Source: Sabellastarte sp. h YS-2021 (taxonomy: Eukaryota > Annelida > Polychaeta > Sabellida > Sabellidae). From it: DNA of 64,000 nucleotides. Location: NCBI GenBank assembly GCA_964017235.1, contig OZ024930.1:154318221-154382220 (forward strand), given 5' to 3'. This document shows, piece after piece, positions 21,725 to 63,005 of this stretch; within the stretch, counting starts at the first letter, position 1; each line of letters starts with the position of its first letter. The translations under genes were made by a program, and so were the position numbers. The notes below the pieces were generated by a model that did no database searches, was not told the DNA's origin, and saw only the letters and a list, made by a program, of their open reading frames with translations.

Positions 21725-21776
<52 letters not shown>

Positions 21777-45010: not shown

Positions 45011-45080
45011 TATTGAAAATCTCCATTCCCAATTAAAATAAACGTGAAATTTCGGACCCCAGGATAAGCACTCGAACGCA
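45011..45080 (+). repeat. Element-wide motif, copy A1 (left edge of Polinton)
   Basis: Plus-orientation copy (TATTGAAAATCTCCATTCCC, AATTAAAATAAACGTGAAAT) lying 900 bases before the first gene. It is the leftmost copy and the best available marker for the element's left side. Confidence 0.85.
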
Positions 45081-45885
45081 ATTCCTCATATACATTCTCA
45101 GTATCACTTGTTTAGTGATATGGCTTTATGAAAACAAAACAATTGCTCTCTATCGTATCTCTCACTTATTATTCTGAATCTTTAATGTTATGGCTATTAG
45201 GGTTAGGGCTTTGGGTTTAGAGATGAAAAATCTTAATTGAACAAACTCCTAGATAAAGTAAATCTCATTTGCATGCAAATCCTAATTTTCTTTACATCAT
45301 AAAGACCATTAAATCAGATAATGCACTAGATAAAAAGAATTTAATATCAAATCTGAATCTACTCTCCTTTGTTACTTTATTTCCTTTGTATTGTTTCCAG
45401 CCAATCTGTTACCCTCTCACCTGTTCCCTTTTATATTTCCCACATCTGCATCTTTGACAGAAGGCCCATTGTTCTATTATTAAAAATGTGTCACTTATTT
45501 TATCATAATTTTTACATAAATATTATAGCCCTCACAAAGACCTCCCCAACCCCCCTCAAACCCACCCTTTCGTATTTCTCACCTCTATCTCATTATGTGA
45601 CTGTCATTAGGAGCTCATACGTTAACTGACAAATACCTGTCTAGCACAAAGACTGCCTTAACTTTATTTTCCTATATTTAAACTTTCTCCTTTCACTCAC
45701 ATCTGTCTAATAACTCTTGTTTTATGTAACACGGGCTATTTATACTGGTAATGAAATGCTGAGCTTGCTTTTGTTTATAAAATTTTTTCTCTGACATAAG
45801 GATCCTGACACTCTTTTCAACACATTTACTAAAAATGCTGATAAGACTAAATCTTTTCTATAGTAATTATAAACTCCCCAGTCGT

Positions 45886-45893
45886 TATATAAA
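45886..45893 (+). promoter_or_regulatory. TATA box (TATATAAA)
   Basis: Lies about 100 bases upstream of the ATG at 45988 and resembles TATA boxes before other genes of this element. A second TATAAAA at 45967 is too close to that ATG unless a later Met is used. Confidence 0.5.
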
Positions 45894-45987
45894 CCCCTGG
45901 GAAATCTGTTTTTGTGAAATATTAAATGCTTATCACTCTTGCGGAATTCTGCAAAAATTATTTTGATATAAAAAAGAATTGTTAGAA

Positions 45988-46395
45988 ATGTCTCAATCAG
46001 GATTAACTCATAGGGATCTATTTCTACAGGTGGGAGATATGAACCTTCAGCACCCAGATTATTTTTTAGAGATGGCACTCAATACCTTTCATATTAAAAA
46101 TTGTACATGCCTAGGGGTGTCATTGTTTTATGTCTCATGCTTCATCTGGCATTATCCATCCTATACTCACAGGATTCTTCTTACAGCCTTTAGTGCCTAC
46201 AAGAACAAACTTATTAAATCCTATTTAGGATGGAGAAAGAGGATGAAAACATATTCGACTCAGGCTCAGCAAATGCGAAGAATTATGCTTAATAGAATGG
46301 TTTCAGGTCAGAGAATGCGTAGACAGGTTATGAGACAGATGGGTATGGAAATCAATGATTCAGACTCTGAAGACGAAGGCATTCACTCTGTCTAG
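45988..46395 (+). CDS. Polinton hypothetical protein, 135 aa
   Basis: The open frame continues upstream to 45979, but the first ATG is 45988. The protein has a hydrophobic segment around residues 38-58 (CLGVSLFYVSCFIWHY), then a strongly basic Arg/Met-rich stretch (residues 80-120) and an acidic end (NDSDSEDEG). I do not recognise it. The basic-plus-acidic tail could suit a nucleic-acid or virion-associated role, but that is speculation. It precedes the polymerase on the same strand by 127 bases, with a TATA box between them, so it is probably a separate transcript. Confidence 0.6.
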   Translation: MSQSGLTHRDLFLQVGDMNLQHPDYFLEMALNTFHIKNCTCLGVSLFYVSCFIWHYPSYTHRILLTAFSAYKNKLIKSYLGWRKRMKTYSTQAQQMRRIMLNRMVSGQRMRRQVMRQMGMEINDSDSEDEGIHSV

Positions 46396-46453
46396 AACTC
46401 ATTAATCATCTGAAATCTTCAACAAAATCAATAATAATTGCAAGACACTCCCC

Positions 46454-46461
46454 TATATAAA
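46454..46461 (+). promoter_or_regulatory. TATA box (TATATAAA) of DNA polymerase B
   Basis: 69 bases upstream of the polymerase ATG at 46523, within the 60-80 base spacing seen for several genes of this element. Confidence 0.65.
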
Positions 46462-46522
46462 CTGGAAAATCTTCAACATATTATAATATCTCCTTATTTT
46501 TCATATCTGAATACCCTGTACC

Positions 46523-49500
46523 ATGGAGTGTAGATGTTATTTATGTGGTTCTAACCTTCTGAATCAGAAAAATCTACTTCATCACCAGAAGTATTGTCAC
46601 CAAGTAACAGATAAGATACAAGAGAAATGCAGGATATGTGATCGACAATTCCATGATAACCAGGCCTTGTGTTTACATCTTCAAAAATGTGGAAAATATA
46701 TCTGTAGGAGCTGTGATCTTCCATTTCTTACAACAGAGGCCCTCAACTTTCATGTGGAGACATTTCATAAGAAATCTACAGCTGCTAAATCTTACAGATG
46801 TGGCATTTGTAAATGCAATTTTGAGGGTAGGAGGGCCCTGTACACGCATAGAATGAGACAACATGGAGGCAACAATGATGACCCTGTCCTACCAGCCTTT
46901 ATTGTAGATAATGATGACAAAAATTTACGTGAGATTTACGTTACAAACATAGATCACACACAGGCTAACCATCAAGAGACTGAACTAAAGAATATCTACA
47001 ATTTTCCAACCAATAATCTGCATGGGGGTTACAGGGAGATTCGATCCCAGGTGAGGGAAATCTATCAGAACCTACACAATGCCTTCAGGATTAATCTCGC
47101 CTTTGGAACCATTTTATTTAACAATGAAACAAGGGAATACAGATATTTTGTTCCACATTACAACAGTAAGATTCTTCAATATCCTTTTCGAATTTCGAAT
47201 ATGAATAGTATTCGTTTTTTGATGAATAAGTTAGCTGGAATCGATATAATTACACAAGCAAGATCAGATAGACCCTCTACTGCCTGGAGCCTCGCCTTCA
47301 TAACTAATGTGCAGTATGTAGTTTTTAAAACAGAGTTTCCATTGGGAAATGCTGAAGACCTGCCAGATTACATCAAACAGAATAGGAATCTGAAGACAAT
47401 GTATATAGACAAATGGACGGGCAAACCATATACAGACAATTTATGTTTCTTTAGATGTCTTCGACAACATTTTAATGGTAACAAAGATTTCCTCGAATAT
47501 TTTCGTGTATGGATGAATTTTAAAAAATCAGAAAAATTAGGAAATTCTACTGGACAATTTACTGGTGTGACTATGGATGAGATGATGGATCTAGAAAGAT
47601 GTTTTAATGTAAAAATTTTGATATATTCTCTGTCACCAGATGGAGTTGTCTGTAATCTGTATAAATCTGTAAATAATTATGATAGTAAGATGTATCTTAA
47701 TGTACATGAAAACCACCTTAGTTATATTGTAGATATAAATAAATTCGCCAAAAAATTTCAATGTGAGAAGTGTCTTAAGTTGTTCACAAGAGAGTGGAAC
47801 ATGCAAAGACACTACAAAGTATGCTATGATAGAACTATCTACCATTTTCCAGGTGGCTTCCATAAGTCACCCTTAACCATATTCGAAAAACTCGAATCTC
47901 TAGGAATACATACCTCTGAGCAATCTAGATATTATAAACTCTTTGCAGTGTGGGATATGGAGGCGATGCTTCAAAAAACAAACCACAGCACCACGAGTAA
48001 ATTGAACTGGATATCCAAACATGTTCCCATTAGTGTGAGTGTAGCTTCTAACATAACCAATTTTGAATCACCGAGGTGTTTTATCAATCCGGATCCGACA
48101 ATTTTGATTCAAAATATGATGGAATATCTCAGACTGATTAGTATAGCCGCTCGTAAACAAATCTCCTGCAAATATTTTCATGTTTTATATGAACTGGATG
48201 AGCTCATTCAGAAATATAAAGAGGATGGGGAGCAGGCGGATTCGGATTTCGAATCAGAGGACTGGGAAGAGGAACTCGAGTCGGACGAATCTGATTCAGA
48301 ATCCAATATTGTCTTTACTCCAAGTAAAAAGATTCTGTCACATTTCATATCCAATATTCAACAAGTTAAGAAAGAGTTTCTTACTTACATTACCCAACTA
48401 CCTGTTATTGGATTTAATTCAGGTAGATACGATCTGAATTTAATTAAGACTGATATTCTCAAGTATATAAGTTTAAATTACACAGAAAATGAAATCTTCA
48501 CCATCAAAAAAGAAAACAGCTATCTCACCATAGGTACTCCACATATGAAATTTTAGATATTTCTAATTATTTAGCAGCTGGATGTTCCTATGAGAAGTTT
48601 CTTAAAGCCTATGGTTGTGACATTCCAAAAGGTGTTTTTCCTTATGAATGGTTTGATTCTCTTGAAAAATTAGACTGCACCTGCTTACCGGAAATGAAAG
48701 ATTTCTATTCTAAAATGAAGATGTCTAACCCATTAGAATCTGAGTCTGAGTATGAAGAGCTTAGAAATCTTTGGAATAAGAATGGTATGAGGACTTTTAG
48801 GGATTATTTAATACATTACAATAATCTAGATACTGGACCCTTCTGTGAAGCCCTCACTACTTTCATAGATCTTTATGTATCGGAAGGGATAGATATTTTT
48901 AAAGATTACATCACCTTGCCTGGTGTAGCCAGAAAAATGATCTATACCTCCTCAGAGAGTAATTTTGCACTCTTCAATTCAGATAACGCAGACCTATACT
49001 ATACATTTAAACAAAATATTGTGGGAGGTCCTAGCATAACTTTTAGCAGATATCAAGAAAAAGGGGTAACAAAAATTAAAAATGTAGAAAATAACTTATG
49101 TGAGAGCGTGGTGGGTTATGACTGTAATGGCCTCTATTCCTATGCTATCAAGCAGCTAATGCCAAGCGGTGTGTATGTAAGAAGATTCCCTGAAAACCAT
49201 TTTAGACCAGAGGTTAGCGAAAGGTACATAGATTCATACGTTTGGTTAGATTATCTCAGCTGTAAAGAGGGAATAAAAATTCGACATAAATTAAATAATC
49301 AAAAAGAGGTGAGAATAGGGAACTTTAGGGTAGATGGTTTTTGTTATCAAAATAAAACAGTTTATGAATTTAACGGATGTTATTACCACGGTTGTAAATT
49401 TAACTGCTTTATAGTTAAAAATTTAAAAAACAAAACCTGGTCAGAAAGACTGAAAAAAGTGCAACAGAGGGATAAAGCTAGAAAGAACTACATAATTTCA

Positions 49501-51339
49501 CAGGGTTATAAATTTGTGGCTATTCAGCAATGTCAATTTATCTCCAAAATAAAACCCAAATGCCTCCGATTTTATGAACATTACCTCCCTTCTTACTACA
49601 GGAAAAATAAGGGGGATTTAACACACTCAAAGATCTTAACAGATGTTAAAAATGGAAGATTGTTTGGTGCATTAGAGGTAGATATCCAGGTGGAGGAGGG
49701 GCATGAAGATTTCTTTCAAGAATATCCCCCCTTTTTTGCTACTTGTGAGGTACCAATGGAGGTAATAGGTTCACATATGCTCTCCTATTGTAACGCCAAT
49801 GACATTCAATTTAAAAGTAAAAGACTTCTGATTAGTGGGCTTAAGGCTCGCAAAATTTTACTTGCCACCCCCCTTTTGCAGTGGTATCTGAAAAATAAAT
49901 GTCAAGTCTCAAAAATCTATCAGATAATCGAATTTCAACCCAAACCCTCATTCACTTCATTCATAGATAAGGTGACCCATCACAGGATTCAGGGTGAATT
50001 AGAGGCAGATAAAGCAATTATAGGGGACACCTTCAAATTGATAAGTAATTCCAGTTATGGTTCCTTTCTCATGAATAAAACTAAACATTCTAATGTGAGA
50101 TATCTAGTGGATAAGAATAAAGTCCGAAAAATAATAAACTCTTGCATTTTTAAAGATATGCAGGATATTAATGGAGTTTTTGAGGTAGAGACCTATAAGT
50201 CTAGAATTGTGATGGATAACCCTATACAAATTGGTTTTTTTATTTTATAATATGCGAAGTTAAGAATGTTGGAATTTTATTATGACTGCTTACTGAAATA
50301 CCTTAGACCCCAGTCATTTGAATTAACGGAAACTGACACCGATAGTCTGTATATGGCTATAAATCAATCTGATCTAGATCTTTGTGTTAGGGGAAGATAC
50401 CGACAGAAATATCATAAGGAAATTTTTGGGTCCTGTTCTGATGAGGTGAATGCACTCTGGTTTCCAAGACGCTGCTGCTCCCACCATATCACTATAGATA
50501 AGAAAATCCCAGGGATTTTTAAGAAAGAATTCTCTGGATTTCGAATGTTATCACTCTGTTCAAAATCCTATATCATAGAGGATCAGGATGGTAAACAGAA
50601 AATATCTTCTAAAGGTATTTCTAAAAAAAATTTAACTGATGCTATGGCTAAATTTTCTCACACTCTAAGCACTGGAGAGACAAGTTTCTCCACCAATTTA
50701 GGATTTAGAATGGGGGATGCTAATATGTTTACCTATTCACAAACTAAAATAGGATTCAATTATTTTTATTGTAAGAGAGAGGTGCAAGATGATGGGATCA
50801 CAACCAGACCTTTAAATATAACCCTCTCACCATGGGAAAGAGAATCCCTGGTTGTATCAGAGGTACAGGATCCCCTATCTAATCTGTACTATTCTCAGAT
50901 GAGAGTAGACGCCTTATCTTATCATTCAATTGAACAAATGTTTTATCACCTTTTAGCCAAACATTACAAAAATATTACACTTTGTCATAAGATTTTGCTG
51001 GAAACAGATCCCCTTAATGTATACAATCATCTTGACAAAACATTTATCTCAAAAAGTAGAAATGAAGAAATTAAGAAGGATATTATGCACCTATGTGTCT
51101 CTGAAAAATTTAGGCAGTGTCAACATTTTCGAGATCGACTAGTATCTGTTAATGATAAGGCTATTTATTATAAGCAGCCTAATTATAGTAGAGAGGATGA
51201 GGCCTATTGGGGTGTCAGTAACCCCACTAAACTTATTTCTGTGCTTCCCCCTAATTCTCTAGCCGGAAATAACATCATGGGTGAGCTAATTATGGATTGC
51301 TGTCGAAAATTTTCTACTGAAATCTCCATTCCCAATTAA
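46523..51339 (+). pseudogene. Protein-primed DNA polymerase B, interrupted at two sites
   Basis: Replication polymerase of the Polinton. Four C2H2-type zinc fingers occupy residues 1-120 (CRCYLCG, CRICDR, CRSCDL, CGICKC), with a fifth near 412-436. Residues about 305-400 (DNLCFFRCLRQH ... HLSYI) have a Cys/His arrangement reminiscent of an OTU-like protease fold (tentative). Exonuclease motifs are WDMEAM near 478 and FNSGRYD near 630. Polymerase motifs are YDCNGLYS (about 49120), NSSYGSF (about 50050) and TDTDSLY (about 50335), with a GCYYHGC nuclease-like insert near 49380. Breaks: a one-base shift in a T run at 48551-48554, giving TAG at 48554, and an in-frame TAA at 50248-50250. The last codons and stop lie in a copy of the element-wide motif. 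Confidence 0.92.
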
Positions 51340-51506
51340 AATTAACAGGAAATTTTGAACCAGAAGGTAAGCACCCCAACGCATTGCCTCTGAATTCCTG
51401 TCACTTTTTGCTGCGACAGTACAGACTGAGGAACTCTGTTGAAAATCTCCATTCCCAATTAAAAATAACAGGAAATTTCGAACCCGAAGGTAAGCACCCG
51501 AACGCA
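51314..51506 (+). repeat. Element-wide motif, copies A2 and A3 at the polymerase 3' end
   Basis: Two plus-orientation copies (51314-51384 and 51433-51506). The first contains the last codons and the TAA of the polymerase frame, within CCCAATTAAAATTAAC. Both carry GAAGGTAAGCACC, a strong splice-donor-like string. They separate the convergent polymerase and protease genes. Confidence 0.9.
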
Positions 51507-51663
51507 TTTGCTCTGAATACTTGTCAGCGTTTTATGATAGTACTGACTGAGGAACTCTGTTGAGCAGGACACAGATGATTCAAGTATGCAATTGTTTTTT
51601 TTGAAGAAATAACAAGAGAAAATATATTTTAATGTAATACCATTTATTTCTTATACTGAATCG

Positions 51664-52116
51664 TCACTTTACAAAGTTATTATTAAAAAATCTAATGATC
51701 ATCTCCTCGTTACTTTTTAGGTTTACTGAAAAATCTGATAAAATACTTTGCATGGTTCTTCCTCTGCTACTGTGATAGCTATAATACAAACAAAATAATC
51801 CACATGTATCTGTCTGATAATTTTGCACTCTCTTATTATTGTATTTGTATGATAATGCATTACTGAATAAATTATTAACTATGTCTCTCTTTGGTTGTTT
51901 TCCTGCTGAATCGAATTGTTCCACAACCTCATTATTCACCCGATGCAATACCACCCAATGGCTCCCCTTGTCAGTGGAGTAATCCAGATTAACAATAGCT
52001 AGGGAGGGAATGGGTAGTTTTTTAGGGATAAGGTCTAGGGAATATACGCCATAGAATTGTTCTCGAATTTTTTCATCCAACCTCATATACTTTGCAATTT
52101 TGTAGCTATCCATCAC
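51664..52116 (-). CDS. Adenain-like maturation cysteine protease, 150 aa
   Basis: Ulp1/adenain-type protease expected to process virion proteins. The triad is visible as His53 (GSHWVVLH), Asp69 (QFDSAGK) and Cys105 with oxyanion Gln101 (QTDTCGLFC). Length is normal for Polinton proteases. Its start overlaps the end of the capsid gene by four bases (ATGA), the last link of a compact minus-strand virion block. The frame is open and all catalytic residues are present, so it appears functional. Confidence 0.92.
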   Translation of the reverse strand: MMDSYKIAKYMRLDEKIREQFYGVYSLDLIPKKLPIPSLAIVNLDYSTDKGSHWVVLHRVNNEVVEQFDSAGKQPKRDIVNNLFSNALSYKYNNKRVQNYQTDTCGLFCLYYSYHSSRGRTMQSILSDFSVNLKSNEEMIIRFFNNNFVK

Positions 52117-53399
52117 CCAACATTTACCATTCTAGCTTGATCTATCTTTAATATTTCAGGGAATTTTGCGTAGACAATAATATTTATAGTTTCTGGAAGG
52201 GCAGTCCCAAATCTTAGACTTAATCTCACATGTCCACTTCCGGAAGTTGTCATCACCTGACCAGATAGGAAACTCTGTATGTCGAATTGGTACAATGCAT
52301 ATCCCTTGGGATAATCTGAAAGTTGAATAATCAAACCATTTTTCCAATCAGAATCGTTTGGTACCAGACTTAGATAAGAGGCTACATAATCTTTTTCATT
52401 GAAATTGGGTTTAAAGGGTCTATTTGGTACAGGCTGTCCATCCACACTCAATTCCATATAATTGAGATCCATATTTTGAAAGTTAAACGGATTTTTAGTG
52501 TAATCTCCAGAATAGGCAGCATTTGAAACTAAGCCAACCACAATCTTGCTGGGAACTTTACCATGGAAGATATTATCAGTCATAAATGTGTGAGATCCTT
52601 TAGCAATACTGAAGCTTTTAATATCACTTCTCCAGAAGGGATAGAGTGCAGGACTTGTTTTCAAAGACTCATTATGAGCGACTAACATATCTGGATTCAA
52701 AGAGATATAACAAACTTTTAAAATAGCCTCTGTGATTTTTAACCTCAACTTTTCTTTCCCATCTCTCATTAATCTGAACTCATTGAAGGATTGAAAAAAC
52801 TTCAAGGTAACCGCCACCCCATTTATTATAGCCCTGGGTTGATCTATTCCAAAGTCTGTATAAAGTAAACCCTCCACACTAGCCGTTCCTCCACTTCTAG
52901 TTGGTCTGCCTCTCTCTGTAAAGCCTGGATTACCCCCTGTGTAGGTGATAGCCTCCATGGCTCCTGGTTGATCTTTATGAAACAATGCTGCCTCACCCTC
53001 TGATTGAACCATGTTGTTGTTGGTTGATAGAAGAAAATCAATCATTGCCTTATACGGATAATTAGCACCCACATCTGAGGATACTACTTTTTGATTTAAT
53101 GCAATATCAACCTGTCTAAAAATTGAATGGAGGGTCAAGTTTATAGGCGCCACCTGGTGACTAGGGGTTGGAGGTTGACCAGCTGATGGTGGCTTATTAT
53201 GAATAGGAACCCCCTTCTCATCTGTAATGATGTATTTTACATGTAACCTGGTTTTAGCTAACCCTGGGATATTAAATTCTATTACACTGCTATCTGTGAT
53301 AGTGGCAATTGGATTGAACTCCACCCAATATTCTTTCTGAATCGTCTTATCTATGGGTGGTGGCTGGAAGATGGTTAAAGGTGTTTGAATTATATCCAT
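52113..53399 (-). CDS. Major capsid protein, double jelly-roll type, 428 aa
   Basis: Position between the basic protein and the protease, length, and beta-rich composition match the Polinton/adintovirus major capsid. The sequence has the look of the invertebrate proteins often labelled F54H12.2-like (start with YWVEFNPIA, then ALYPFWRSDIKSFSIAKG and YMELSVDGQPVPNRP). Gly/Pro-rich loops are common (NKPPSAGQPPTPSH; TYTGGNPGFTERG). The frame is open throughout. It overlaps the upstream basic gene by 10 bases and the downstream protease by 4. The jelly-roll call rests on family resemblance and synteny; a structure prediction would confirm two stacked jelly rolls. Confidence 0.87.
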   Translation of the reverse strand: MDIIQTPLTIFQPPPIDKTIQKEYWVEFNPIATITDSSVIEFNIPGLAKTRLHVKYIITDEKGVPIHNKPPSAGQPPTPSHQVAPINLTLHSIFRQVDIALNQKVVSSDVGANYPYKAMIDFLLSTNNNMVQSEGEAALFHKDQPGAMEAITYTGGNPGFTERGRPTRSGGTASVEGLLYTDFGIDQPRAIINGVAVTLKFFQSFNEFRLMRDGKEKLRLKITEAILKVCYISLNPDMLVAHNESLKTSPALYPFWRSDIKSFSIAKGSHTFMTDNIFHGKVPSKIVVGLVSNAAYSGDYTKNPFNFQNMDLNYMELSVDGQPVPNRPFKPNFNEKDYVASYLSLVPNDSDWKNGLIIQLSDYPKGYALYQFDIQSFLSGQVMTTSGSGHVRLSLRFGTALPETINIIVYAKFPEILKIDQARMVNVG

Positions 53400-53794
53400 A
53401 ATGAGTGAGAATTGAATTTTTTCTTCTTACTCTTTACTTGCACCCCCTTCTGGACAGATGATGATGATCTCCTAGTGCTGCTACCTTTCCTAGTTTTATT
53501 TTTATTCTTGGAAGAAATTTTTCTTGAGGATTTCTTTGTAATCTTACTCTTTCTAGTCTTCCCACCAGTTTGACCTTTGTGGGTTCCAACCATGCTATTT
53601 ATACCCTTTTTCAATTTTATCTCACTCTTGGCCTGCTCCACTGCTGCCTCTGTAGGTGTAACTAATGTAACCTCCACCGGTTTGTCATTAACCCTATCTG
53701 TTTCTGAATTTTTAGGATTTAATTCATAAAAATTTGGGTTATATGCGACTCTTCCCTCAATACATTTCTTGCAAAAGTTTAAATATTTATCCAT
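53390..53794 (-). CDS. Basic core-like protein, 134 aa
   Basis: The N-terminal third is ordinary and includes CKKCIEGRVAYNPNFYELNP. The last 60 residues are extremely Lys/Arg/Ser-rich (KITKKSSRKISSKNKNK and TRRSSSS), as in DNA-condensing virion core proteins. It lies between the penton-like and major capsid genes, overlapping them by 8 and 10 bases. A DNA-packaging role in the particle is inferred from charge and position, not from homology. Confidence 0.7.
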   Translation of the reverse strand: MDKYLNFCKKCIEGRVAYNPNFYELNPKNSETDRVNDKPVEVTLVTPTEAAVEQAKSEIKLKKGINSMVGTHKGQTGGKTRKSKITKKSSRKISSKNKNKTRKGSSTRRSSSSVQKGVQVKSKKKKFNSHSLWI

Positions 53795-54200: not shown

Positions 54201-54257
54201 TCTCCCTCTTTTTCATTCAATTATGAAAGCTTTAATACAAATACAGGGCAGCATTGG

Positions 54258-54266
54258 CTATTTATA
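54258..54266 (-). promoter_or_regulatory. TATA box (TATAAATAG) of the virion gene block
   Basis: About 60 bases upstream of the penton ATG on the minus strand, overlapping the stop codon of the integrase. It is the only promoter-like site before four overlapping genes (penton, basic, capsid, protease). Overlaps of 4-10 bases would demand splicing, reinitiation or hidden promoters. Confidence 0.65.
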
Positions 54267-55505
54267 GTTCTTCCATAGCTGTCTCTGGTATCCAGGAATT
54301 AAATTTGCTTGGCCATCCTTTCCATTTTACCAGCATCTCTGATATCCCCTTTCTTTTCCTTTTTTTAAGAATTTTTTCTATTTTGTAGACCATATTTTCA
54401 TCCAAAAATGCTAGTTGTAATTCAGGTTCATAAAAATATGACGTTATGACCTCATTTTGATAATCTTTTAGTTGATACATTGGGATATCTTGGTTTAGTT
54501 TTCTATCAATGATTGTAAAAATCTCACCAGACCATTTTTCAGCATATTCTCGATCGAAACTGTTCTTTAGATAACTTATTTTAACCCTATCACCAACCTT
54601 ATACTTAAATTTCACCCTTTTAGGGTTAGGTCTGGTCTTCTTCATGCTTTTGTCTTTCTTAATACCCTTAGTTTTGAGGCCGTATTGATAAGACCATATA
54701 TCATACTGGTTTGAACTCTGAGCCTTTGTGGGGGTCATCTTAATAGATCTATGGCTGGCATTGTTGTAACTAGCCGTAAAGTTTTGTAAATTATCTACCC
54801 ATCTGAAGGATTCTCTAGCTGTTAAATATTTGAATATCTTGAGTTTAATTGTTTTTATTACTCTCTCTGCGTAATTAGCTTTAGTTTCATAATAAGTAAA
54901 TATCTGATCCACCTTTGAGATTCTCAAAAATTTGGTCACCTCTGAATTTTTATATTCACTACCTTGATCACTTCTTATTTTCTGTGGTTTCACCTCTGAT
55001 TCCTCAAAAATATTAGACATGACTTGCTTCATTTCCTTTCCTGTGAGAGTATACATTGGTCTGGTATAGAGATAATGAGTAAATATATCGATAAAAACCA
55101 CAAAATAGCCATAATTATCATTCGATTTTCTGTATTTCACCATATTAGCAGTATCTGTATCCCATTGATAATTTTTGGAGAAGGAAAGGACCTTGGGTCT
55201 CTTGAAATGTCTCCTGACAGGATGATGTGAAGTATAGGCCTCCTGTTTAGCTAGCCACTGTTTAATAGTTCTCCTTGAAATCTTGTATTGACCATTTTTT
55301 TCAAAAATTGGTACAATTTTTCAAACCCACTGAAGGAGGCGGGACTACTGGGGTTATAATATGCCTCTTTAAGCACTATCTCCAAATCAGGAGAGATTTT
55401 TATTCCAGAATTTAATCCATGCTGGTTTGCGCTCTCTGATAGACTCCCTGTCTCCTCCCCTCTGTTTTGTAGTCGATCGTCCTTGCTGTTTAACCCTTCC
55501 TCCAT
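54262..55505 (-). pseudogene. Retroviral-type integrase with C-terminal chromodomain, one frameshift
   Basis: Inserts the element into host DNA. The N-terminal part, including the family phrase EAYYNPSSPASFSGFEKLY, lies in the frame starting at 55505. The catalytic part lies in another frame ending at 54262. The change occurs at a seven-base A run (T run 55295-55301 on plus). Catalytic residues are visible: Asp in QWDTDTANM, Asp in RSDQGSEYKN and Glu in NYAERVIK. The end carries a chromodomain (VYKIEKILKKR ... MLVKWKGWPSKFNSWIPE), as in many Polinton and chromovirus integrases, which may steer insertion toward marked chromatin. Apart from the shift it looks fresh. Confidence 0.9.
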
Positions 55506-55755
55506 TGGAATTATTTGGGGTTTTTTGAGCGCCAGTCATTCGCTTATCTACACTACTCTCAGGCAATCCTGGTGGGGGTGACATATATAGGCTCTCATTG
55601 CTTCCAGTCTCAGCCTTGGACGATGTTACAGCATTATTCAATTGCTCAGATTCCTCATCAGCTGTATTGCTTTTATACGGGCCTTGTTTTTCAATTTCGA
55701 AATATTTTTTAAATTTCAAAAATTGTTCATGAGGTACCATTACAAATTTATTCAT
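55387..55755 (-). CDS. Small conserved Polinton gene upstream of integrase, 122 aa
   Basis: It starts MNKFVMVPHEQFLKFKKYF, a K-F-V-x-V-P opening often seen in small Polinton proteins next to the integrase. Then come a Ser/Glu-rich linker, PPPGLPESSVDKRMTG, and a basic Gln/Gly-rich end. It overlaps the integrase start by 119 bases in another frame, and its ATG overlaps the terminal TGA of the preceding reading frame as ATGA. Function unknown; a virion-precursor role would be a guess. Confidence 0.65.
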   Translation of the reverse strand: MNKFVMVPHEQFLKFKKYFEIEKQGPYKSNTADEESEQLNNAVTSSKAETGSNESLYMSPPPGLPESSVDKRMTGAQKTPNNSNGGRVKQQGRSTTKQRGGDRESIRERKPAWIKFWNKNLS

Positions 55756-56060
55756 TGTAAAATTTGGTTGATATATTTCCTTATGCTATATAATAATTCT
55801 GAAAAAATTGTGTGATGTTTCTTCAGTAATTGAAGCCGCCCTCTAACCCTTCTTAGAAATCATTTAATCAACCCAGAATATTTTTTAAATTTTGCCTTGA
55901 TCTTTTTACTGAGTGGCAGACGAAAAATATTGAAGAAAATCTCTGCAATGGCTTTTATTTGTGACTGATTAGCCTCTGAAAAGATATACTTGTTTAAATT
56001 TTTATTGTTATCCAATATAACCTTTAGAAAATGCTTTGCTCTAAGGAGATTAGAAGACAT
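55752..56060 (-). pseudogene. Small conserved Polinton protein with internal TGA
   Basis: A 66-codon frame (56060 to 55860) starts MSSNLLRAKHFLKVILDNNK and resembles a short helical Polinton protein family that continues with a basic tail. Here TGA at 55860-55862 stops it. The same frame stays open for another 35 basic, tail-like codons and ends in a TGA that overlaps the next gene's ATG at 55752-55755. That overlap matches the element's other gene joints. I infer a nonsense change in a roughly 100-residue gene. Confidence 0.6.
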
Positions 56061-56087
56061 ACTGATCAGTAGTCTTTAATCTAGCAA

Positions 56088-56107
56088 GTATTTATAGCTA
56101 TTTATAT
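56088..56107 (-). promoter_or_regulatory. Two TATA-like boxes (TATAAATAC; TATATAAATAG)
   Basis: They lie 30-45 bases upstream of the 56060 ATG on the minus strand. The distal one overlaps the stop codon of the ATPase gene. They could drive the small gene, the 55755 gene and the integrase. Confidence 0.5.
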
Positions 56108-56937
56108 ACGGTTAGGTACTCATCAGGAAAAATATGGGTACGTAACCAGGAGGTCTTATCTCTGGTAGGAGATAGATCTATCAGCAAGTAACTGAAAGAT
56201 TCTGCAGTGGCGTCGTCATAGGCCAGACAGACCTTATCACACATTCTTAACTGATTTCCTAAGATTTTTATTTGATTGATATCCCTAGGATTTTTAAATA
56301 AAATAAAATAATGTGTATTCAGGGTAATGTCTCTACTATATTTTCCCGAATGGTAGAGATTTTGTAAAATCAAAAAGACGCTCAGATTTCTGTGATGTGA
56401 TTCTCTACTAAATAGATTGGTAATAGAGGGGCTATTCACTGCTGTCATTTGTAAATCATCAATAATAATCAGATTATGCTTAGAGTCGGCAATTTGCTTT
56501 ATTCGAGCCTCATCTGGAACTCCTTGAATAAATTCTAAATTTTCAATTATTTTGTTGTCAAAGGATTTCTGCCATACCCCATAAAAGTAGTACACCTTCT
56601 CCACAGGAACCTCAAACATAGCATTTAAATTCTCCAATAACTTAAAGACAAAGTTTGTCTTTCCAGAGCCCGTAGGACCTGCAATCATTGCAGTAGTGGG
56701 TGAAAAAAATCTGAACATTGTTATCTCTATCTTATCTCGTGAGTCACATAGTAAACAATCAGAAAGCTGGTTAGTCTCCTCTCTATTTATATTATTTTCA
56801 CTTGCCAAGATTACAATCGCCTGCTTGCCAGTTACCTCAATACCTGCCAGATATCCTAGACAAAAGATTTTGTTTTGTATTATTTTCAGGTATTGTTGTG
56901 GCATAGAGTACATACAAATCAGAAAATGCAGGCTCAA
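56098..56937 (-). CDS. FtsK/HerA-type DNA-packaging ATPase, up to 279 aa
   Basis: Pumps DNA into the capsid. Walker A is GPTGSGKT at residues 87-94 and Walker B is LIIIDD at 156-161 of the longest frame. An SVFLILQNLYH segment follows with the usual sensor Gln, then RDITLNTHYFILFKNPRD. The first ATG (56937) falls on a TATAAATATT box, so translation more likely starts at Met9 or Met12 (about 56904-56913), with a Met74 start also possible. It is divergent from, and overlaps by about 12 bases, the membrane protein gene on the other strand. Intact. Confidence 0.9.
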   Translation of the reverse strand: MSLHFLICMYSMPQQYLKIIQNKIFCLGYLAGIEVTGKQAIVILASENNINREETNQLSDCLLCDSRDKIEITMFRFFSPTTAMIAGPTGSGKTNFVFKLLENLNAMFEVPVEKVYYFYGVWQKSFDNKIIENLEFIQGVPDEARIKQIADSKHNLIIIDDLQMTAVNSPSITNLFSRESHHRNLSVFLILQNLYHSGKYSRDITLNTHYFILFKNPRDINQIKILGNQLRMCDKVCLAYDDATAESFSYLLIDLSPTRDKTSWLRTHIFPDEYLTVYK

Positions 56938-58048
56938 ATATTTATACTCTTAGGCTTTTTACCCGGATTAATATATTCTAAAGCTTGTTTCCAGAGAATG
57001 TGTAACTGTGAGAATGATATGGCTGTTTGTATAGATGTTGTATGGGTGGAATTTACCTATAATCCAAAAATCCGTATTTTATATCTGAAACAGTTGGAAT
57101 ATCTAGATATCCATCTAGTCTTGAAAAATTTTCCCTCTTTAGAATATTGGGTAATGATGGATATGATGTACTTCAACTGCAGTTGGATTAAAGAAATTCC
57201 ATTGCAAATTAAAGTATCCACTAATATGTACACAGACAAGGTCCAGAAAGGTGAGTTTATTAACCTATGCAGATAAAAATGTAATCTAATAGTCAGAGAA
57301 AAAATGCCTTTGGGGTGCTTAGACTCGGGTTCGAAATTTCCTGCTATTTTTTAATAGGGAATGGAGATTTTTAACAGATTTCCTCAGTCTGTACATTCAC
57401 AGCTTACTGTCATCGCCTCCAAAGAAGCACAGAGGATAGCAATGGCTCATTAATATGTTTATGAGGTGCTTACCTACGGGTTCGAAATTTCCTGTTAATT
57501 TTAATTGGGAATGGAGATTTTCAACAGAGTTCCTCACTCTGCACCTTCACAGCCTACTGTCATTGCGTCCACAGAGGCATACAAAGCATTACCTCATTAA
57601 TATGTCTATCTGATCTACCTTCGGTTTAGAAATTTCATGTTAATTTTAATTGTGGATGTAGATTTTCAACAGACCTCTACAGCAATTTTTTCCCTTTTTT
57701 TGATTAGCTACAACAGAGAGTGAGATATGGGAGGATACCCAGTCCTTATTGTCATCAACAGGTCTCTGGGATTCAACTACCTCTGCCCAGTATTCGTCAA
57801 ATAATTCTGATCATAATATGAGCAAAAATAGAGATTACAGTAGCACTCATATCCAAAGGTACTACTGGATATTAATCTCGATCAGTACCGCATGCATTAT
57901 GGTTGTATTACTATTTGCATGGATTTTGGGAAGAAAATTATTATGCTGTAAGCTTCGAAGAAATTCGGGAAATGAGACAAATGCTGTCAAAATGGAGGAT
58001 GTGAGACATACTGCTGATGAGGAGACTGAGACCAATCCAGAAAGGTAG
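56926..58048 (+). CDS. Spliced type I membrane protein A, 221 aa (exons 56926-57250, 57708-58048)
   Basis: Exon 1 encodes a signal peptide (QAQIFILLGFLPGLIYSKA) and a Cys-rich ectodomain CFQRMCNC...C, with Leu-spaced strands (LKNFPSLEYWVMMD) like a minimal leucine-rich repeat with caps. It ends at a CAGAAAG|GTGAGT donor in phase 1. Exon 2 follows a TTTTTTTGATTAG acceptor and continues in frame with a Ser/Thr-rich stalk, a transmembrane helix (ILISISTACIMVVLLFAWIL), a CCKLRR stop-transfer and a 45-residue acidic tail. The intron holds three copies of the element-wide motif. Its neighbour at 58187 has the same layout. I do not recognise the family; a particle-surface or host-modulating role is possible. 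Confidence 0.78.
57313..57378 (-). repeat. Element-wide motif, copy B1 (intron of membrane gene A)
   Basis: Minus-orientation copy of the roughly 65-bp motif (consensus parts AATCTCCATTCCCAATTAAA and GGAAATTTCGAACCCGAAGG), with a TA-rich variant centre. Confidence 0.85.
57466..57528 (-). repeat. Element-wide motif, copy B2 (intron of membrane gene A)
   Basis: Near-consensus minus-orientation copy about 150 bases from B1 and from B3. The spacers share CTCATTAATATGT and 'cctcactctgcac' phrases, so the true unit is about 145 bp. Confidence 0.9.
57614..57673 (-). repeat. Element-wide motif, copy B3 (intron of membrane gene A)
   Basis: Decayed minus-orientation copy (TTCGGTTTAGAAATTTC ... GTGGATGTAGATTTTC) ending 35 bases before the splice acceptor. 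Confidence 0.8.
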
Positions 58049-58186
58049 GAAATTTGTTATGAAATTGTGAAATTATTATTTTATACGAATGAAACAGGGA
58101 TTGTGACATCACATTGCATGAACATATAATTTGTGACGTATTTTTTAGCTAATGACAACCTATGACGTTTCTCAAACCTTGTTTAC

Positions 58187-59561
58187 ATGTCTATTTTCTT
58201 CATCATGGCTTATTTAGTAGAGATTTTATTTATTGTATCTTTATATCTGTCAAGTATGGATTGCTATCATGTTGAATGTAACTTTTATAAGGATACGTCG
58301 CATTTACATATTGTGGGATTGAGATCATTTGAAGACTTTAAAAATTACGGGATCAAATGTGGTGATTACGACGTTGTTACTCTAGTATACGAAGACTGTT
58401 ATCTGGGACAAATCACACTTCCTCTTAGGAATATTATCCTAAGTTACCCAAATTTGAGGACTCTGTATTGGCGGTGTAAAGGATATTGTGTACATCAAGA
58501 TACCAGAATCACTGTAGTCGGATGCAGTTTGGGTAAGAGCTAGGAATCATATACTCTATTGTATTAAGGATCTATGTGATCCTAAGATTTCATAAAGTCT
58601 AAAATATTTATGCATTGCTGCATACTGAGTTATCAGATTTCACCTACATTTTTCATATAAAAATATTTGTCGGATGTCATGATAACCACACTCTGTTGAA
58701 AATCTCCATTCCCAATTAAAATTAACGGGAAATTTCGAACCCCAGAGTAAGCACACGAACGCAATCTGTCGCCTCATATAGCTTTAGTTAGGGGTTTATG
58801 CATTACAGCATATCCACTTAACAGATTTCACCTTACAGTTTTATACATAAAAATATTTGTATGTAAATCACACAATTTACAGATTTTTATATTTCTTTTA
58901 TTTTTTATGTTTAGACCACAGAGAGGAGTCAGACAAATGCAACCGGAGGAGATCTGAGGTGAATGGCCAGGATGATTATGACAATAATTGTGAGCATCAT
59001 GATGATGAGAATTATGATGATGAGCAGGATAACGACCAGAATGACCTATATGCCCTTCTGGTTATACCATTTTTTGGAATTATTGGTGGAATTATGGTGT
59101 ATGTTATTCGACGTTTTAAGGATAGACTGCTAATTATAATTCTGGATACAATTTTTAATTGCACTGGGGGTAGAGAAAGAGTTGAAACTAGCACATCAGA
59201 GACTGATAGCACGAGTGCTGATACGACTTATGTGAAAGAAAGGTTACAAGTTCCACAGGTTACATCAGAGACTTCCAGTTCCATTTTTCCCCTCAGCTCA
59301 TTCTCTGCCGACACCTGGGACGACAGGATTGTGACAGACGCTGAAAAATTTTTTGATCACTGGATGGAGGAGAGGAAAAATGTAACCGAGGTGTCTACAC
59401 AGGTCAGTGATTCAGACATTGAGATGCAGATAGAAATGAAGGATATATCAATAATGAGGTCTAGTGATGAGGTACATAGATCTGACCATGAAGTGGAAAC
59501 AGCAGAGACCAGCTTCATACAGACTAGGTCTGGTCGTACATACAAAAAAATTTTTGTATAA
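58187..59561 (+). CDS. Spliced type I membrane protein B, 330 aa (exons 58187-58532, 58915-59561)
   Basis: Exon 1 starts at ATG 58187 (a second Met at 58205 also fits) with a hydrophobic signal (MAYLVEILFIVSLYLSS). A Cys-rich ectodomain follows, in which LSYPNLRTLYWRCKGYCVH parallels the NFPSLEYW region of protein A. It ends TTGG|GTAAGA in phase 1. Exon 2, after TTATGTTTAG, continues in frame with a His/Asp/Glu/Asn-rich stalk (about 40 residues), a transmembrane helix (LYALLVIPFFGIIGGIMVYV), a basic RRFKDR stop and a long acidic Ser/Thr-rich tail ending TRSGRTYKKIFV. Together with gene A it forms a tandem pair, probably from duplication. Function unknown. Confidence 0.75.
58608..58860 (+). 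repeat. Direct repeat flanking a motif copy inside the gene B intron
   Basis: A 60-base phrase (TGCATTGCTGCATA ... CAGATTTCACCTACA ... TATAAAAATATTTGT) at 58608-58671 is repeated with changes at 58798-58860. Motif copy A4 lies between them (58691-58760). The arrangement is a tandem duplication or an insertion between repeats. Confidence 0.75.
58691..58760 (+). repeat. Element-wide motif, copy A4 (intron of membrane gene B)
   Basis: Near-consensus plus-orientation copy (TGTTGAAAATCTCCATTCCC then AATTAAAATTAACGGGAAAT). Confidence 0.9.
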
Positions 59562-61231
59562 AAAAAGAATGGAGAAAAAACTTTTAGACTTACATTTATA
59601 GATTGAGACCTCATGGACCTTAGTTTCAGTTATTTTGTAATTTTCAAATTTTTTTTTTTTTTTTTTCCCCAAGTAATTATTGGAATTATGATCATATGAT
59701 AGATTTGTTGGTTATTAATTTAGAATATTACTGTCATCCATAATATGTTGTAATTGTGTTTCCATGAATGTTTGTTGACATTTCTTATCAGAGATTTTTT
59801 TTGGAAGAATATTATATATTTAATTCCTTTTAATTGTACTAATTATCATCCTTTGATTATTATTATGTCTCTCTGATATATACATATATGTAATTTTCTT
59901 GTGAGAATAGTTCATAAAGAATAATATATGTGATAATTTTCCATCTTTTATTGTCAAATAACCATATAACCCTTTCAAACAATATATACATAAGAATTTC
60001 AATAAAAAATCCTATACAGGTATCATGGCGTAGAGCATATTAATGATATCTTTAACAGAGGATTCTACATAGAATGACTTTAAAAAAATAAAAAAATTCA
60101 GTGTCACACAATGAAAAGTAATAATTCAGTCACATTGAATGGAATTGAAGGTGTAACAGAAAAATATTTTTTTTAAAATCTTTTGAGAAAAATAGACTGG
60201 TCATACATCCAATTTATTATGTTAACATTTACACAAACCAGAGCAGACTTCTCCATTGCAATGACTGGTGTCGCTGATTGATTGCAAAGAAAAAGCTAAA
60301 TAAATACCAGTACTTTGTAAATGGAGACATATGATGAGCTCATATTGTCGAAATTCTTTTGCAATGGTTTATTTTATTAAAATAAAAATAGGTTAAGACA
60401 CCTCCTTTAACAAGATAAATTATGACCTAGCAGGCTGAACAATTCTTTTGAGAGATGACTGTACAGAGCGTTCTTCTGATTACACAGAAGATCTCATACA
60501 GAATAAAAAGCATAAATCAGCTTGATTGTACAGTCACCACACAAAAGGCGTGTCATGTACAGTTGTTTAAATATTGACTTAAGGATGCATATAAATTATG
60601 AGGAAGTGCTACCTTATCCAAAAAAGCATCTGAAACCTTCATGTATTCAGCTATTATAATAAAATCATTTCTTAACAAGATCATTGTTTTTTAGTAGATT
60701 AAAGACATATGACAAAATAATATAAATTACTAAGGATCTACAGGAGTAATCATATACTAAGTGAAAAATATTTACATTAGCTTCCAAATATTAAATGATT
60801 TAAAAAAAACTTCAGATTATTCAAACTCTTGCAAACTATAATTACAGAGATTTTTTTTTGACATTTACCTTTTTTCAAAGTTTTTTATTCCCTCTATTAC
60901 ACATTCAGCTGGTTTTATAAAACTTCTATAAGATTGTCTAAGTGATATCTCAGTCCCTCCATCATTTTGATATATGCCGAGCTCCTTGTCTTATTAATTA
61001 TCCCAATGGTTTCATGCTGTTGATGATGACAGTTGCTCAGATTTATTCTGGGTATCCTTCTGTTATTGATGACATCTGGCTTGATTGGCTCTGTGCAGAA
61101 TGTAACCTAGTCAATTTTTAGGGATATGACAGGAGAAAAAAGGATGAAGACTGAGGAGGCACCCCATTCATTCAGACCAAATTTAGAAATAAAAAATTAT
61201 TTTTAACAAAAAATTTTGAGATTGTAGACCA
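59562..61231. other. AT-rich Polinton interval, no gene seen
   Basis: 1.67 kb between membrane gene B and the RING gene 3' end. It holds an 18-base T run near 59649-59666 and scattered TATA-like strings. Only short frames occur (60 codons or fewer that look random). Both neighbours converge here, so 3' untranslated regions of both may extend in. Confidence 0.55.
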
Positions 61232-63005
61232 CTAGGTGTTTGTAGGACGCAACATGCTGCAACCACTAGGGTCAACATGCCATTGGGTGTTACACTCTAA
61301 ACACCTACTCGGATGATGTGCTAAATTACCGGATATTAGTGCTGAGCATGTTGTACAATAAAAGTGATAACAAGAGCTCATAAAAGCCCTTGTTAATGGT
61401 AGGTCTATTTTACAGCAGGCGCATGTTAAGTTGTTGGCTTGTTGCTGGTAATATGTAGCCCACTGAGGAGCTATCATAGTTTCCACATCTTCTGGGCTTT
61501 TGCCTAGAAAAAAGGCGCACCCAAAGGCCATCTCGAGGTCTCTATTAGTTAGAGCCTCGATCAGCAATTGGTCATAACTGGTATTCATGTACATGGAAGT
61601 GGGGACCCATGTAAATAGTGAGGTAGTGCTCATTTTTGAACTGCGGATAGAGTAGGCCTTTGTGAATTTGTGTTCTAAAAGTATGGTCCTACATATGGGA
61701 CACCTCAGTTCAGACTCAGCCCCATCCTGCCACATCCTTGATAACTGACAAGAACACTCCACACAGAGCAAGTGTCCACATGGGTTGGTCAGTATGATGT
61801 CTGCCTGATCTAAGGCGTCTTTACAGATAGCACATTCAGCTTTTTCTAGGAATTGGCTCACAAATTGAACGAAATCTGGATATTTCCGGCTGAAAAATAT
61901 AAAAATTAGAGAAATTTTAGTTATTTGACTAAATAGCAGAGATTAGTCAATACAAAATTGGGTTGAGAAAAGGAAATTGTGTTCCTGTGCATACCTGGGA
62001 GTTCAAATTTCACGTTATTGCTTATTGTGATTGGAGATTATCAACAGTCCTCACCCTAGGGAAATGCCTCCGATTGTTTGTCAGAATACTGCAGTATTGC
62101 AGAGCTATGATTCTCTGTTGAAAATCTCCATTCCCAATTAGAATTAACAGGAAATTTCGAACCCGAAGGTAAGCACCCTGACATACATATTAATGAGCTT
62201 AAGTCTTCTCAACCTCTCTGGATGTTGTGAGCAAGTATACTCAAGTATGAGGAATACTGTTGAAAATCTCCATTCCCAATTAAAATTAACGGGAAATTTC
62301 GAACCCGAAGGTAAGCAGCTTGACATACATATTAATGAGCTTATGCCTTCTCAATCTCTGTGGATGCTGTGAGAGCAAGTATATCAGAGGAATACTGTTG
62401 AAAATCTCCATTCTCAATTAAAATTAACATTGACAATTTGCATATTGAGGGTAGAGAAACCCTTTTCGTATATTATCTCTCACTGAGAAATTACACATGT
62501 TTTACCCAAAAAGCTTCATTAAGATAAAAAATAAAAATTAATTGAGATAGTTTAGCAAATAAGGAAATACATCAAATTTAGGAGATTTATCTAACTAGAC
62601 CCTAAATTTCACCCACTTGGTTTTTTATTAGAGCTGTCATGAGAGAAGATAATTTATTGACATTTATTAACATTTCATTAAAATTCTTACTTGAATGAAT
62701 GGTGTTACGCTCAGGAGGGGGTCTATACAAAGCTAGTTCTACAATAGCCTCACAGCTCCACCTCGTTACATTGGAATAAGTCCTCTCTAAAATTTTATGT
62801 AAAAAATTAAAAATAAATAAATATTTGGTACTTACACAATAAAGGCCGGTAGAATGTCGTTGAGCAGGATGTAACAAACCATCGCCTGCTGGTAGTGTCC
62901 ATTGTCAATCAGCATCAGTAGTTCACAAATGGTTATCATATTGGAAATCAGATGATTGGGTCGAAAGAGATCAATTCTTCTTCCAATTTGTACAAAGTTA
63001 TCCAT
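61232..63005 (-). CDS. Spliced two-RING protein, 275 aa (exons 63005-62836, 61889-61232)
   Basis: Exon 1 (ATG 63005, MDNFVQIGRRIDLF) ends TTATTGT|GTAAGT with two bases of a Val codon. Exon 2, after ATTTTTCAG, supplies the third base and continues RKYPDFVQFVSQFL into the first RING (CAICKDALD ... CGHLLCVEC ... CPIC). After a helical middle comes a second RING-like module (CACCKIDLPL ... CYHFYCTTC ... CLEC). The predicted role is an E3 ubiquitin ligase acting on host or viral targets. The 946-bp intron carries four motif copies. The open frame of exon 2 has no ATG before the RING, which supports the splice. A TATA box lies 71 bases upstream. Confidence 0.8.
61988..62046 (-). repeat. Element-wide motif, copy B4 (intron of RING gene)
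   Basis: Degenerate minus-orientation copy (GGGAGTTCAAATTTCACG ... GATTGGAGATTATCAACAG). Confidence 0.7.
62112..62430 (+). repeat. Element-wide motif, copies A5-A7 in tandem (intron of RING gene)
   Basis: Three plus-orientation copies begin at about 62112, 62256 and 62394, spaced about 143 bases. Shared spacers carry ACATACATATTAATGAGCTT and 'ctctgtggatgctgtgag' phrases. The last copy is truncated after AATTAAAATTAACATTGAC. Confidence 0.92.
62590..62790 (-). other. Open stretch inside the RING intron, possible alternative exon
   Basis: About 60 codons ending at 62602 (RTYSNVTRWSC ... ALYRPPPERNTIH) follow a TTTTAG acceptor near 62795. Joining to exon 1 would need the weaker GTGTAA donor. 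The main splice to 61889 fits better, so this is at most an alternative form. Confidence 0.3.

What the first reader, a model, noticed from the sequence alone, without database searches (positions are those of the whole stretch)
45011..62430. A roughly 65-bp motif in about eleven copies, restricted to the Polinton and concentrated in its introns
Copies on plus: 45011, 51314, 51433, 58691, 62112, 62256, 62394. Copies on minus: 57313, 57466, 57614, 61988. Shared core: AATCTCCATTCCCAATTAAA, then GGAAATTTCGAACCCGAAGG and TAAGCACC. Where copies are tandem the full unit is about 127-150 bp with conserved spacers (ATATTAATGAG). Eight of eleven lie inside the introns of the three spliced accessory genes. 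I saw none in the 45 kb of host sequence to the left. Candidate explanations are a small mobile unit that lives inside the Polinton, an introner-like source of introns, or an enhancer, insulator or replication element.
Basis: partly seen in the sequence, partly recalled or inferred. Interest (0 to 1): 0.9.

Follow-up and report, generated by a model that had tools for sequence, protein, structure and literature searches.

The report
Conserved 62-bp repeat inside mollusc-like Polintons
A family of virus-like mobile elements in this mollusc-like genome carries the same 62-letter DNA word, singly or in small arrays, near an end and in its introns; the word stays nearly constant while the DNA around it changes, so it is probably a protein-binding control element of the mobile element itself.

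Summary
The window holds 11 copies of a 62-bp core, all inside a Polinton whose left terminus is at 43971. In the 1.79-Gb host genome a 29-bp core pattern has 1587 matches, reversed control 0. Of the 100 listed, 87 lie within 25 kb of a listed capsid-gene match, 11 were read and are Polinton, 2 fit by spacing only. All 15 accessory regions examined, chosen because they hold the motif, carry it in or at all three introns. In the gene-2 intron the core is about 88% identical between haplotypes while flanks are near chance, in either orientation. The intron ends are not part of the repeat, so an introner is unlikely. Best reading: an orientation-independent protein-binding DNA element (enhancer and/or replication element), repeated as baculovirus hr regions are. 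Location and footprint are shown; function is inferred. Intron enrichment is weak by cluster (3 of 5, P = 0.13).

The parts
43971..44010 (+). left terminus of the Polinton (AGTAGTATATAT...)
   Evidence: same sequence in the window and in 10 fetched loci; flanks differ except L019/L020, which are one junction read twice
44200..44940 (+). terminal minisatellite (units of about 31-39 bp) inside the Polinton end
   Evidence: similar sequence beside other Polinton ends in L011, L013, L020, L029, L033
45009..45070 (+). core copy 1, left subterminal
   Evidence: inverted counterpart at about 65312
51312..51373 (+). core copy 2, overlaps the stop codon of the PolB-like ORF
51435..51496 (+). core copy 3, 123 bp after copy 2; the array has 3 units in L026
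57251..57707 (+). intron of accessory gene 1 (GTGAGT..ATTAG), inferred
   Evidence: donor and acceptor at the same place in 7 of 7 haplotypes
57317..57378 (-). core copy 4 (with a 1-base insertion)
57467..57528 (-). core copy 5
57612..57673 (-). core copy 6
58535..58914 (+). intron of accessory gene 2, inferred
   Evidence: donor GGTAA in 7 of 7 haplotypes; acceptor placed in the window only
58692..58753 (+). core copy 7; plus orientation in 8, minus in 7 of 15 accessory regions
61890..62835 (-). intron of the RING-finger gene (GTAAGT..TTTTCAG), inferred
   Evidence: acceptor in 7 of 7, donor in the 5 haplotypes where exon 1 was found
61987..62048 (-). core copy 8 (diverged, inverted to the next three)
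62114..62175 (+). core copy 9
62256..62317 (+). core copy 10
62394..62430 (+). core copy 11, truncated after the first half

Best explanation
The 62-bp core is a cis-acting DNA element that belongs to this Polinton family. It sits near the left terminus and, inverted, beside the same kind of minisatellite towards the right end, after the PolB-like gene, and in the accessory-gene introns, as 1 to 5 units per site (diverged units counted). Shown: in the sample it is confined to Polintons, recurs at the same sites, stays similar where the DNA around it is close to unalignable, lies in either orientation in the gene-2 intron, and varies in unit number. Inferred: a host or element-encoded protein binds it, and the dispersed arrays act as orientation-independent enhancers of the element's genes and possibly also as replication-associated sites, in the way baculovirus hr regions work. 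Introns are used because in a compact element they are non-coding space that tolerates arrays. Internal copies probably came from a subterminal copy and were then locally duplicated and lost by unequal exchange.
For: Confined to Polintons in the sample: 1587 matches (<=3 mismatches) vs 0 in the reversed control; 166 matches of a capsid-gene 29-mer, control 0, about 9.6 motif matches per capsid match against 11 copies in the window. Sites: 15 of 15 accessory regions carry it in gene-1 and gene-2 introns and between RING exon 2 and the next gene; RING exon 1 was found beyond it in 13 of 15. Footprint: gene-2 intron, 7 haplotypes, 20 pairs, 40-bp windows over the core 0.87-0.88 identical; more than 100 bp downstream 0.50-0.56 against shuffled 0.50-0.54. 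The gene-2 exon-1 bin is only 57-66% identical to the window in the diverged haplotypes. Orientation there is plus in 8 and minus in 7 of 15, which argues for DNA-level action. Unit number varies: gene-1 intron 1-3, RING intron 2-5, PolB end 1-3 in the four loci read and the window. No RNA fold beyond shuffles in 6 sequences, no Rfam family at gathering score, no tRNA.
Against: No expression, binding or replication data. The regions were fetched because they hold the motif, so 15 of 15 is not an unbiased rate. Copies in inverted orientation could be independent insertions of a core that spreads only within Polintons, so similarity could partly reflect re-seeding or gene conversion. Ungapped core identity is only slightly higher at the same site of different elements (0.773) than at different sites of different elements (0.738) or of one element (0.736), and is lowest within one array (0.725), because diverged and truncated units persist beside good ones. 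The best ungapped core identity in the gene-2 intron averages only 0.79, minimum 0.68, against 0.87-0.88 with gaps allowed. The core is not palindromic, unlike hr. No transcription-factor library was available.
Confidence: 0.5

Rival explanations
1. Selfish, non-functional repeat: a subterminal minisatellite-like unit that is copied into other non-coding sites of the same element by recombination or template switching during element replication, and partly homogenised by conversion.
For: All units share the core and some share spacers; arrays differ in unit number; terminal-type and internal-type cores intergrade; the element end is rich in minisatellite.
Against: Spacers are mostly near shuffled values between sites while the core is not; each of 15 accessory regions has at least one copy at each of the three sites (regions picked by motif); the non-coding block between gene 2 and the RING gene (1.67 kb in the window) has no match above score 15 in any of the 14 fetched stretches.
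Confidence: 0.22
2. Replication or packaging element only (origin-like iterons or recognition sites for element proteins), not an enhancer.
For: Inverted copies towards the two ends and copies spread along the element.
Against: Polintons are thought to start DNA synthesis by protein priming at the ends (recalled), which needs no internal sites; no origin-binding partner was identified here.
Confidence: 0.15
3. Recombination linkers that promote exchange of accessory cassettes between Polintons.
For: Copies are mosaics. L034 is 90.8% identical to the window on one side of the PolB-end array and 96.2% on the other, and the similarity of L042 to the window ends inside that array (no Polinton protein match beyond it).
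Against: Six sharp identity shifts in the accessory region (about 56330, 57800, 59845, 60160, 61670, 63150, read by eye against the window only) all lie outside the arrays, the nearest about 127 and 317 bp away. The gradual fall through the gene-1 array in L041, L044, L045, L050 and L053 was not assigned.
Confidence: 0.08
4. Introner-like unit that created the introns.
For: Three introns contain it; GGTAAG inside the core resembles a 5' splice site.
Against: In the window the repeat ends 34 bp or more from all splice sites; orientation is mixed; the letters around AACAG and GGTAAG are among the variable ones; copies lie outside introns; no intronless allele among 15 accessory regions or among the 7 of 9 RING homologues that I read (only 4 of them extend upstream of exon 2).
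Confidence: 0.03

Closest known systems
Baculovirus homologous regions (hrs)
   Same: One repeated core at several dispersed sites of a DNA virus genome; hrs can act as replication origins and as transcriptional enhancers bound by IE1 (PMC6669502, passages seen).
   Different: The AcMNPV hr core is a 30-bp imperfect palindrome; this core is 62 bp and not palindromic. Here copies lie in introns and near an element end, in a Polinton; no binding protein or activity is known.
Vertebrate Maverick/Polinton elements
   Same: Integrase (here with chromodomain) and A32-type ATPase, a capsid-like and a PolB-like gene (named by order and recall), terminus beginning with AG.
   Different: Intact vertebrate Mavericks have no introns (PMC8097293, passages seen); this element has three genes with inferred introns, a RING gene and the repeated core.
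Introners / introner elements (recalled)
   Same: Repeated sequence found inside several introns.
   Different: Here the repeat does not carry the splice sites and is not confined to introns.
Tandemly duplicated viral enhancers such as the SV40 72-bp repeat (recalled)
   Same: Short direct repeats, variable unit number.
   Different: Several dispersed arrays per element rather than one; activity untested.

Membership tests
Polinton/Maverick (host element) | retroviral-type integrase (rve) | tested here: met
   54262-55143: rve 1.3e-8, Chromo 7.2e-10, both above cut-off
Polinton/Maverick (host element) | packaging ATPase of A32 type | tested here: met
   56098-56937: Pox_A32 8.7e-6, above cut-off
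Polinton/Maverick (host element) | protein-primed PolB | tested here: inconclusive
   no Pfam polymerase hit in the three ORF pieces; DTDSLY, NSSYG and NGLYS motifs seen by eye, from memory
Polinton/Maverick (host element) | jelly-roll major capsid protein | tested here: inconclusive
   112 homologues but no Pfam or PDB sequence match; name from gene order and recall; no fold was predicted
Polinton/Maverick (host element) | adenovirus-type cysteine protease | tested here: inconclusive
   51664-52131: Peptidase_C5 only at E 0.04, below cut-off
Polinton/Maverick (host element) | terminal inverted repeats starting with AG and 6-bp target duplication | tested here: inconclusive
   left terminus AGTAGT found; right terminus of this copy not found within 3 kb of the window end; target duplication not tested
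Baculovirus hr | same repeat at several dispersed sites | tested here: met
   five clusters in the window plus one copy to its right
Baculovirus hr | imperfect palindrome core | tested here: not met
   self-complementarity as in shuffles in 4 of 4 cores tested
Baculovirus hr | enhancer and origin activity, bound by viral transactivator | not testable with these tools
   no assay data
Introner | repeat carries or directly generates the splice sites | tested here: not met
   distances of 34 bp or more in the window; mixed orientation
SINE or tRNA-derived element | tRNA-like head or Pol III structure | tested here: inconclusive
   no tRNA gene (which would miss a degenerate head), no Rfam family at gathering score
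Free mobile element (MITE or SINE) | copies scattered in host DNA outside Polintons | tested here: not met
   of 100 listed matches 87 near a capsid match, 11 read as Polinton, 2 by spacing only; 1487 matches not examined

The most novel reading that the evidence does not exclude
An animal Polinton family carries its own dispersed regulatory or replication system: a 62-bp element towards the ends, after PolB and in every accessory intron, recognised by a dedicated (perhaps element-encoded) protein, functionally parallel to baculovirus hr regions but of independent origin and seated in spliced genes.
Probability: 0.3. Interest if true: 0.75.

Novelty: new variant of a known kind. Interest (0 to 1): 0.58.

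Why it matters
How animal Polintons control their genes is not covered by anything that my searches of an open-licence paper library listed. A non-coding element that recurs at the same sites while the neighbouring cassettes turn over gives a concrete handle on that. The element family, with 166 capsid-gene pattern matches in one genome and inferred introns in three accessory genes, allows comparative and reporter tests.

Tried and rejected
Introner (splice sites outside the repeat, mixed orientation). Coding meaning of the core: the frame reading ENLHSQLKLTGNFEPEGKHP is broken by stops in the copies at 45018 and 62020, judged by eye. Structured RNA: 6 sequences folded, z from -1.05 to 0.81. 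Micro-exon: the AACAG acceptor-like letters are among the most variable of the core. Recombination linker: sharp breakpoints in the accessory region miss the arrays, though L034 and L042 at the PolB-end array speak for it. Viral contigs: two exact 20-mer matches, in contigs judged unrelated from the letters around them; prokaryote genome contigs none; capsid relatives in viral contigs none, and the alignment version could not run; phage records none for the first PolB-like ORF piece. The protein collection gave 7 clusters of reading frames over the motif besides P0118. These map best to the PolB end (P0122-P0124), the gene-1 intron (P0126, P0127), the gene-2 intron (P0128) and, by its RING exon, the RING intron (P0118); P0125 fits no single site.
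Full report
What was checked. A direct scan finds the core at all 11 stated places. A position matrix built from eight copies scores 74-98 for those eight (leave-one-out 59-93), 20.6-30.5 for the three partial ones, and -0.8 for the next best place in 64 kb; 20 simulated windows of the same dinucleotide content reach at most 2.0. So the set is complete at this sensitivity and is not chance.

The element around it. Pfam finds an integrase core with chromodomain (54262-55143), an A32-type ATPase (56098-56937), a RING finger (61232-61861) and, in the last piece of the PolB-like frame, a NADAR domain. The capsid-like protein has 112 homologues; those named with an organism are molluscs (Pinctada, Mytilus, Saccostrea, Gigantopelta), and the nearest cluster (97%) has 212 members. 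PolB, protease and capsid are named from motifs, gene order and recall; Pfam and the PDB sequences do not support them at their cut-offs. The element begins at 43971 with AGTAGTATATAT; the same start occurs in 10 fetched loci, with differing flanks except L019 and L020, which read one junction twice. The repeat array at 44.2-44.9 kb is therefore inside the element's end. Beyond the window, at about 65312, lies an inverted copy of the motif with sequence like the left minisatellite further right; the right terminus itself was not found in the 3 kb fetched.

The host. The window lies in a genome of 1.786 Gb in 647 contigs. With 35% G+C and the mollusc relatives this recalls a venerid clam such as Mercenaria mercenaria (1.86 Gb, 19 chromosomes, 35% G+C, Mavericks 1.7-1.9% of the genome: PMC8905726, passages seen). 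The species is not established.

Where the motif is in the genome. A 29-bp core pattern (<=3 mismatches) has 1587 matches, reversed control 0; a capsid 29-mer has 166, control 0, of which 100 are listed. Of the 100 listed exact motif matches (contig 1 and part of contig 2), 87 lie within 25 kb of a listed capsid match, where chance gives 0.4%; these 87 were assigned by distance. Of the other 13, eight were read and hold Polinton genes or ends (L034, L038, L042, L057-L061). Three (L017, L028, L055) carry the element's terminus sequence. Two in the 149.1-Mb cluster were not read and are assigned by spacing to L061. A second pattern made from a core variant gives 1439 matches, control 0. Of its 100 listed matches I examined the 57 exact ones on contigs 1-6, which partly overlap the first sample: 52 lie within 25 kb of a listed capsid match. 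Of the remaining five, three were read and resemble Polinton ends or accessory genes (L063-L065); two were not read, one 6.4 kb from the start of the 51-kb-type match in L058 and one 31.7 kb from the nearest listed capsid match. No host-only copy was found; 1487 matches of the first pattern were not examined.

Introns. Splice sites were compared in seven haplotypes (window, L041, L044, L045, L048, L051, L053). The gene-1 donor (GGTGAG) and acceptor (ATTAG) are present in 7 of 7, the gene-2 donor (GGTAA) in 7 of 7, the RING acceptor (TTTTCAG) in 7 of 7, and the RING donor (GTAAGT) in the 5 where exon 1 was found. The gene-2 acceptor could not be placed in the six other haplotypes. Of nine RING exon-2 homologues I read seven. 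Four extend upstream of the exon and differ there, and one of them, P0118, reads through a stretch that holds the motif. Splicing itself was not observed.

Site recurrence and footprint. Sixteen 10-kb stretches were fetched around motif clusters; 14 hold the accessory region, L042 and L055 do not. In those 14 and the window, 15 of 15 hold at least one copy between the gene-1 exons, between the gene-2 exon matches, and between RING exon 2 and the next gene; in L044 and L045 RING exon 1 was not found, so the intron placement there is by position. Because the regions were picked by motif matches, this is not an unbiased rate. The gene-2 copy is in plus orientation in 8 and minus in 7. Around that copy, pairwise gapped identity over 20 pairs of seven haplotypes (the near-identical pair L045/L053 left out, the related pairs L041/L044 and L048/L051 kept) is 0.87-0.88 over the core. 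It falls within about 40 bp on either side to 0.50-0.63, against 0.50-0.59 for single-letter shuffles; from -120 to -60 a slight excess remains (0.63 against 0.57-0.59). Without gaps the best core identity there averages 0.79 (minimum 0.68), against 0.92 in the gene-1 and 0.96 in the RING site. Exon 1 of gene 2 (bin 58200-58500) is 57-66% identical to the window in the diverged haplotypes, and the exon-2 bins 59100-59700 are 52-67%. By this rough comparison the core is better kept than the exons.

Between sites of the window element (10 of 11 copies compared; 62394 left out) the core is 69-97% identical. Spacers are mostly near shuffled values, with a clear excess within arrays and a smaller one between the gene-1 and RING arrays and for a few other pairs, such as upstream of 51435 and 57467. 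Over seven haplotypes the ungapped core identity is 0.773 for the same site of different elements, 0.738 for different sites of different elements, 0.736 for different sites of one element and 0.725 within one array. Site identity is thus only a weak predictor, and there is no sign of strong homogenisation within elements.

Unit number. Gene-1 intron 1-3 units, gene-2 intron 1, RING site 2-5 counting diverged ones; PolB end 2 in the window, 3 in L026, 2 in L034 and L042, 1 in L058. The protein-collection cluster P0122 (7 members) suggests the start of a further unit at the PolB end. Arrays thus differ in length.

Type. Many subterminal and gene-2 copies share an ending like TCAGAGTAAGCACNCGAACGCAAT; most gene-1, RING and PolB-end copies share CCGAAGGTAAGCACC. 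Copies near element ends share a longer stretch on both sides. This suggests that the internal copies derive from a subterminal one; that is inference.

Recombination. Copies are mosaics: relative to the window, L053 is 88.8% on the left and 98.1% on the right of the accessory region; L051 is 99.0% on the left and 95.4% on the right. Sharp identity shifts, read by eye from 30-bp counts against the window, lie at about 56330, 57800, 59845, 60160, 61670 and 63150, none inside an array. I therefore gave up my first idea that the arrays are exchange points as the main reading. Against that rejection: two shifts lie about 127 and 317 bp from an array, L034 changes from 90.8% to 96.2% across the PolB-end array, and the similarity of L042 to the window ends inside it.

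Mechanism. A word that recurs at the same sites, in either orientation, in non-coding DNA that otherwise turns over, with no RNA fold beyond shuffles and no open frame in all copies, is best explained as a protein-binding DNA element. Its repetition over one virus-like element recalls baculovirus hrs, which act as enhancers and origins (PMC6669502, passages seen). It is not an hr: the palindrome is missing. Whether the effect is on transcription, replication or both cannot be told here.

Literature. Searches in an open-licence library listed no paper that, by title, abstract start or the passages read, describes such an element; (introner with Polinton) listed none at all. Passages were read in PMC12220804, PMC6669502, PMC8097293, PMC8905726 and PMC10294476; all other papers were seen in the listing only. 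Vertebrate Mavericks are reported as intronless (PMC8097293).

Noticed in passing
window 50266-51339: A NADAR domain (E 7e-11) forms the C-terminal part of the PolB-like frame, directly before the first motif array; the PolB-like gene is in three frame pieces here.
   Followed up: no
window 57710-59561 and L041-L056: Hypervariable accessory cassette: gene-1 exon 2 and gene 2 are 36-79% identical in protein to the window in nine fetched stretches whose ATPase and right-hand gene are 84-100% identical, in mosaic combinations.
   Followed up: partly
window 44200-44940: Terminal minisatellite of 31-39-bp units inside the Polinton end.
   Followed up: partly
L060 1693-2001: A Polinton terminus abuts a diverged capsid-gene fragment (59%), as if one Polinton had inserted into another.
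   Followed up: no
L042 from about 4894: Similarity to the window Polinton stops inside the PolB-end motif array; no Polinton protein match was found beyond it.
   Followed up: partly
L019, L020 (contig 1, about 41.54 Mb): Two Polintons appear to lie next to each other within a few kb.
   Followed up: no
window 3-5144: BEL/Pao retrotransposon frame (Peptidase_A17, RVT_1) running off the left edge.
   Followed up: no
window 19119-23588 and 25427-29037: Two arrays of the same 133-bp satellite, each followed by a CGC run and a 351-bp repeat array, a duplicated composite block.
   Followed up: no
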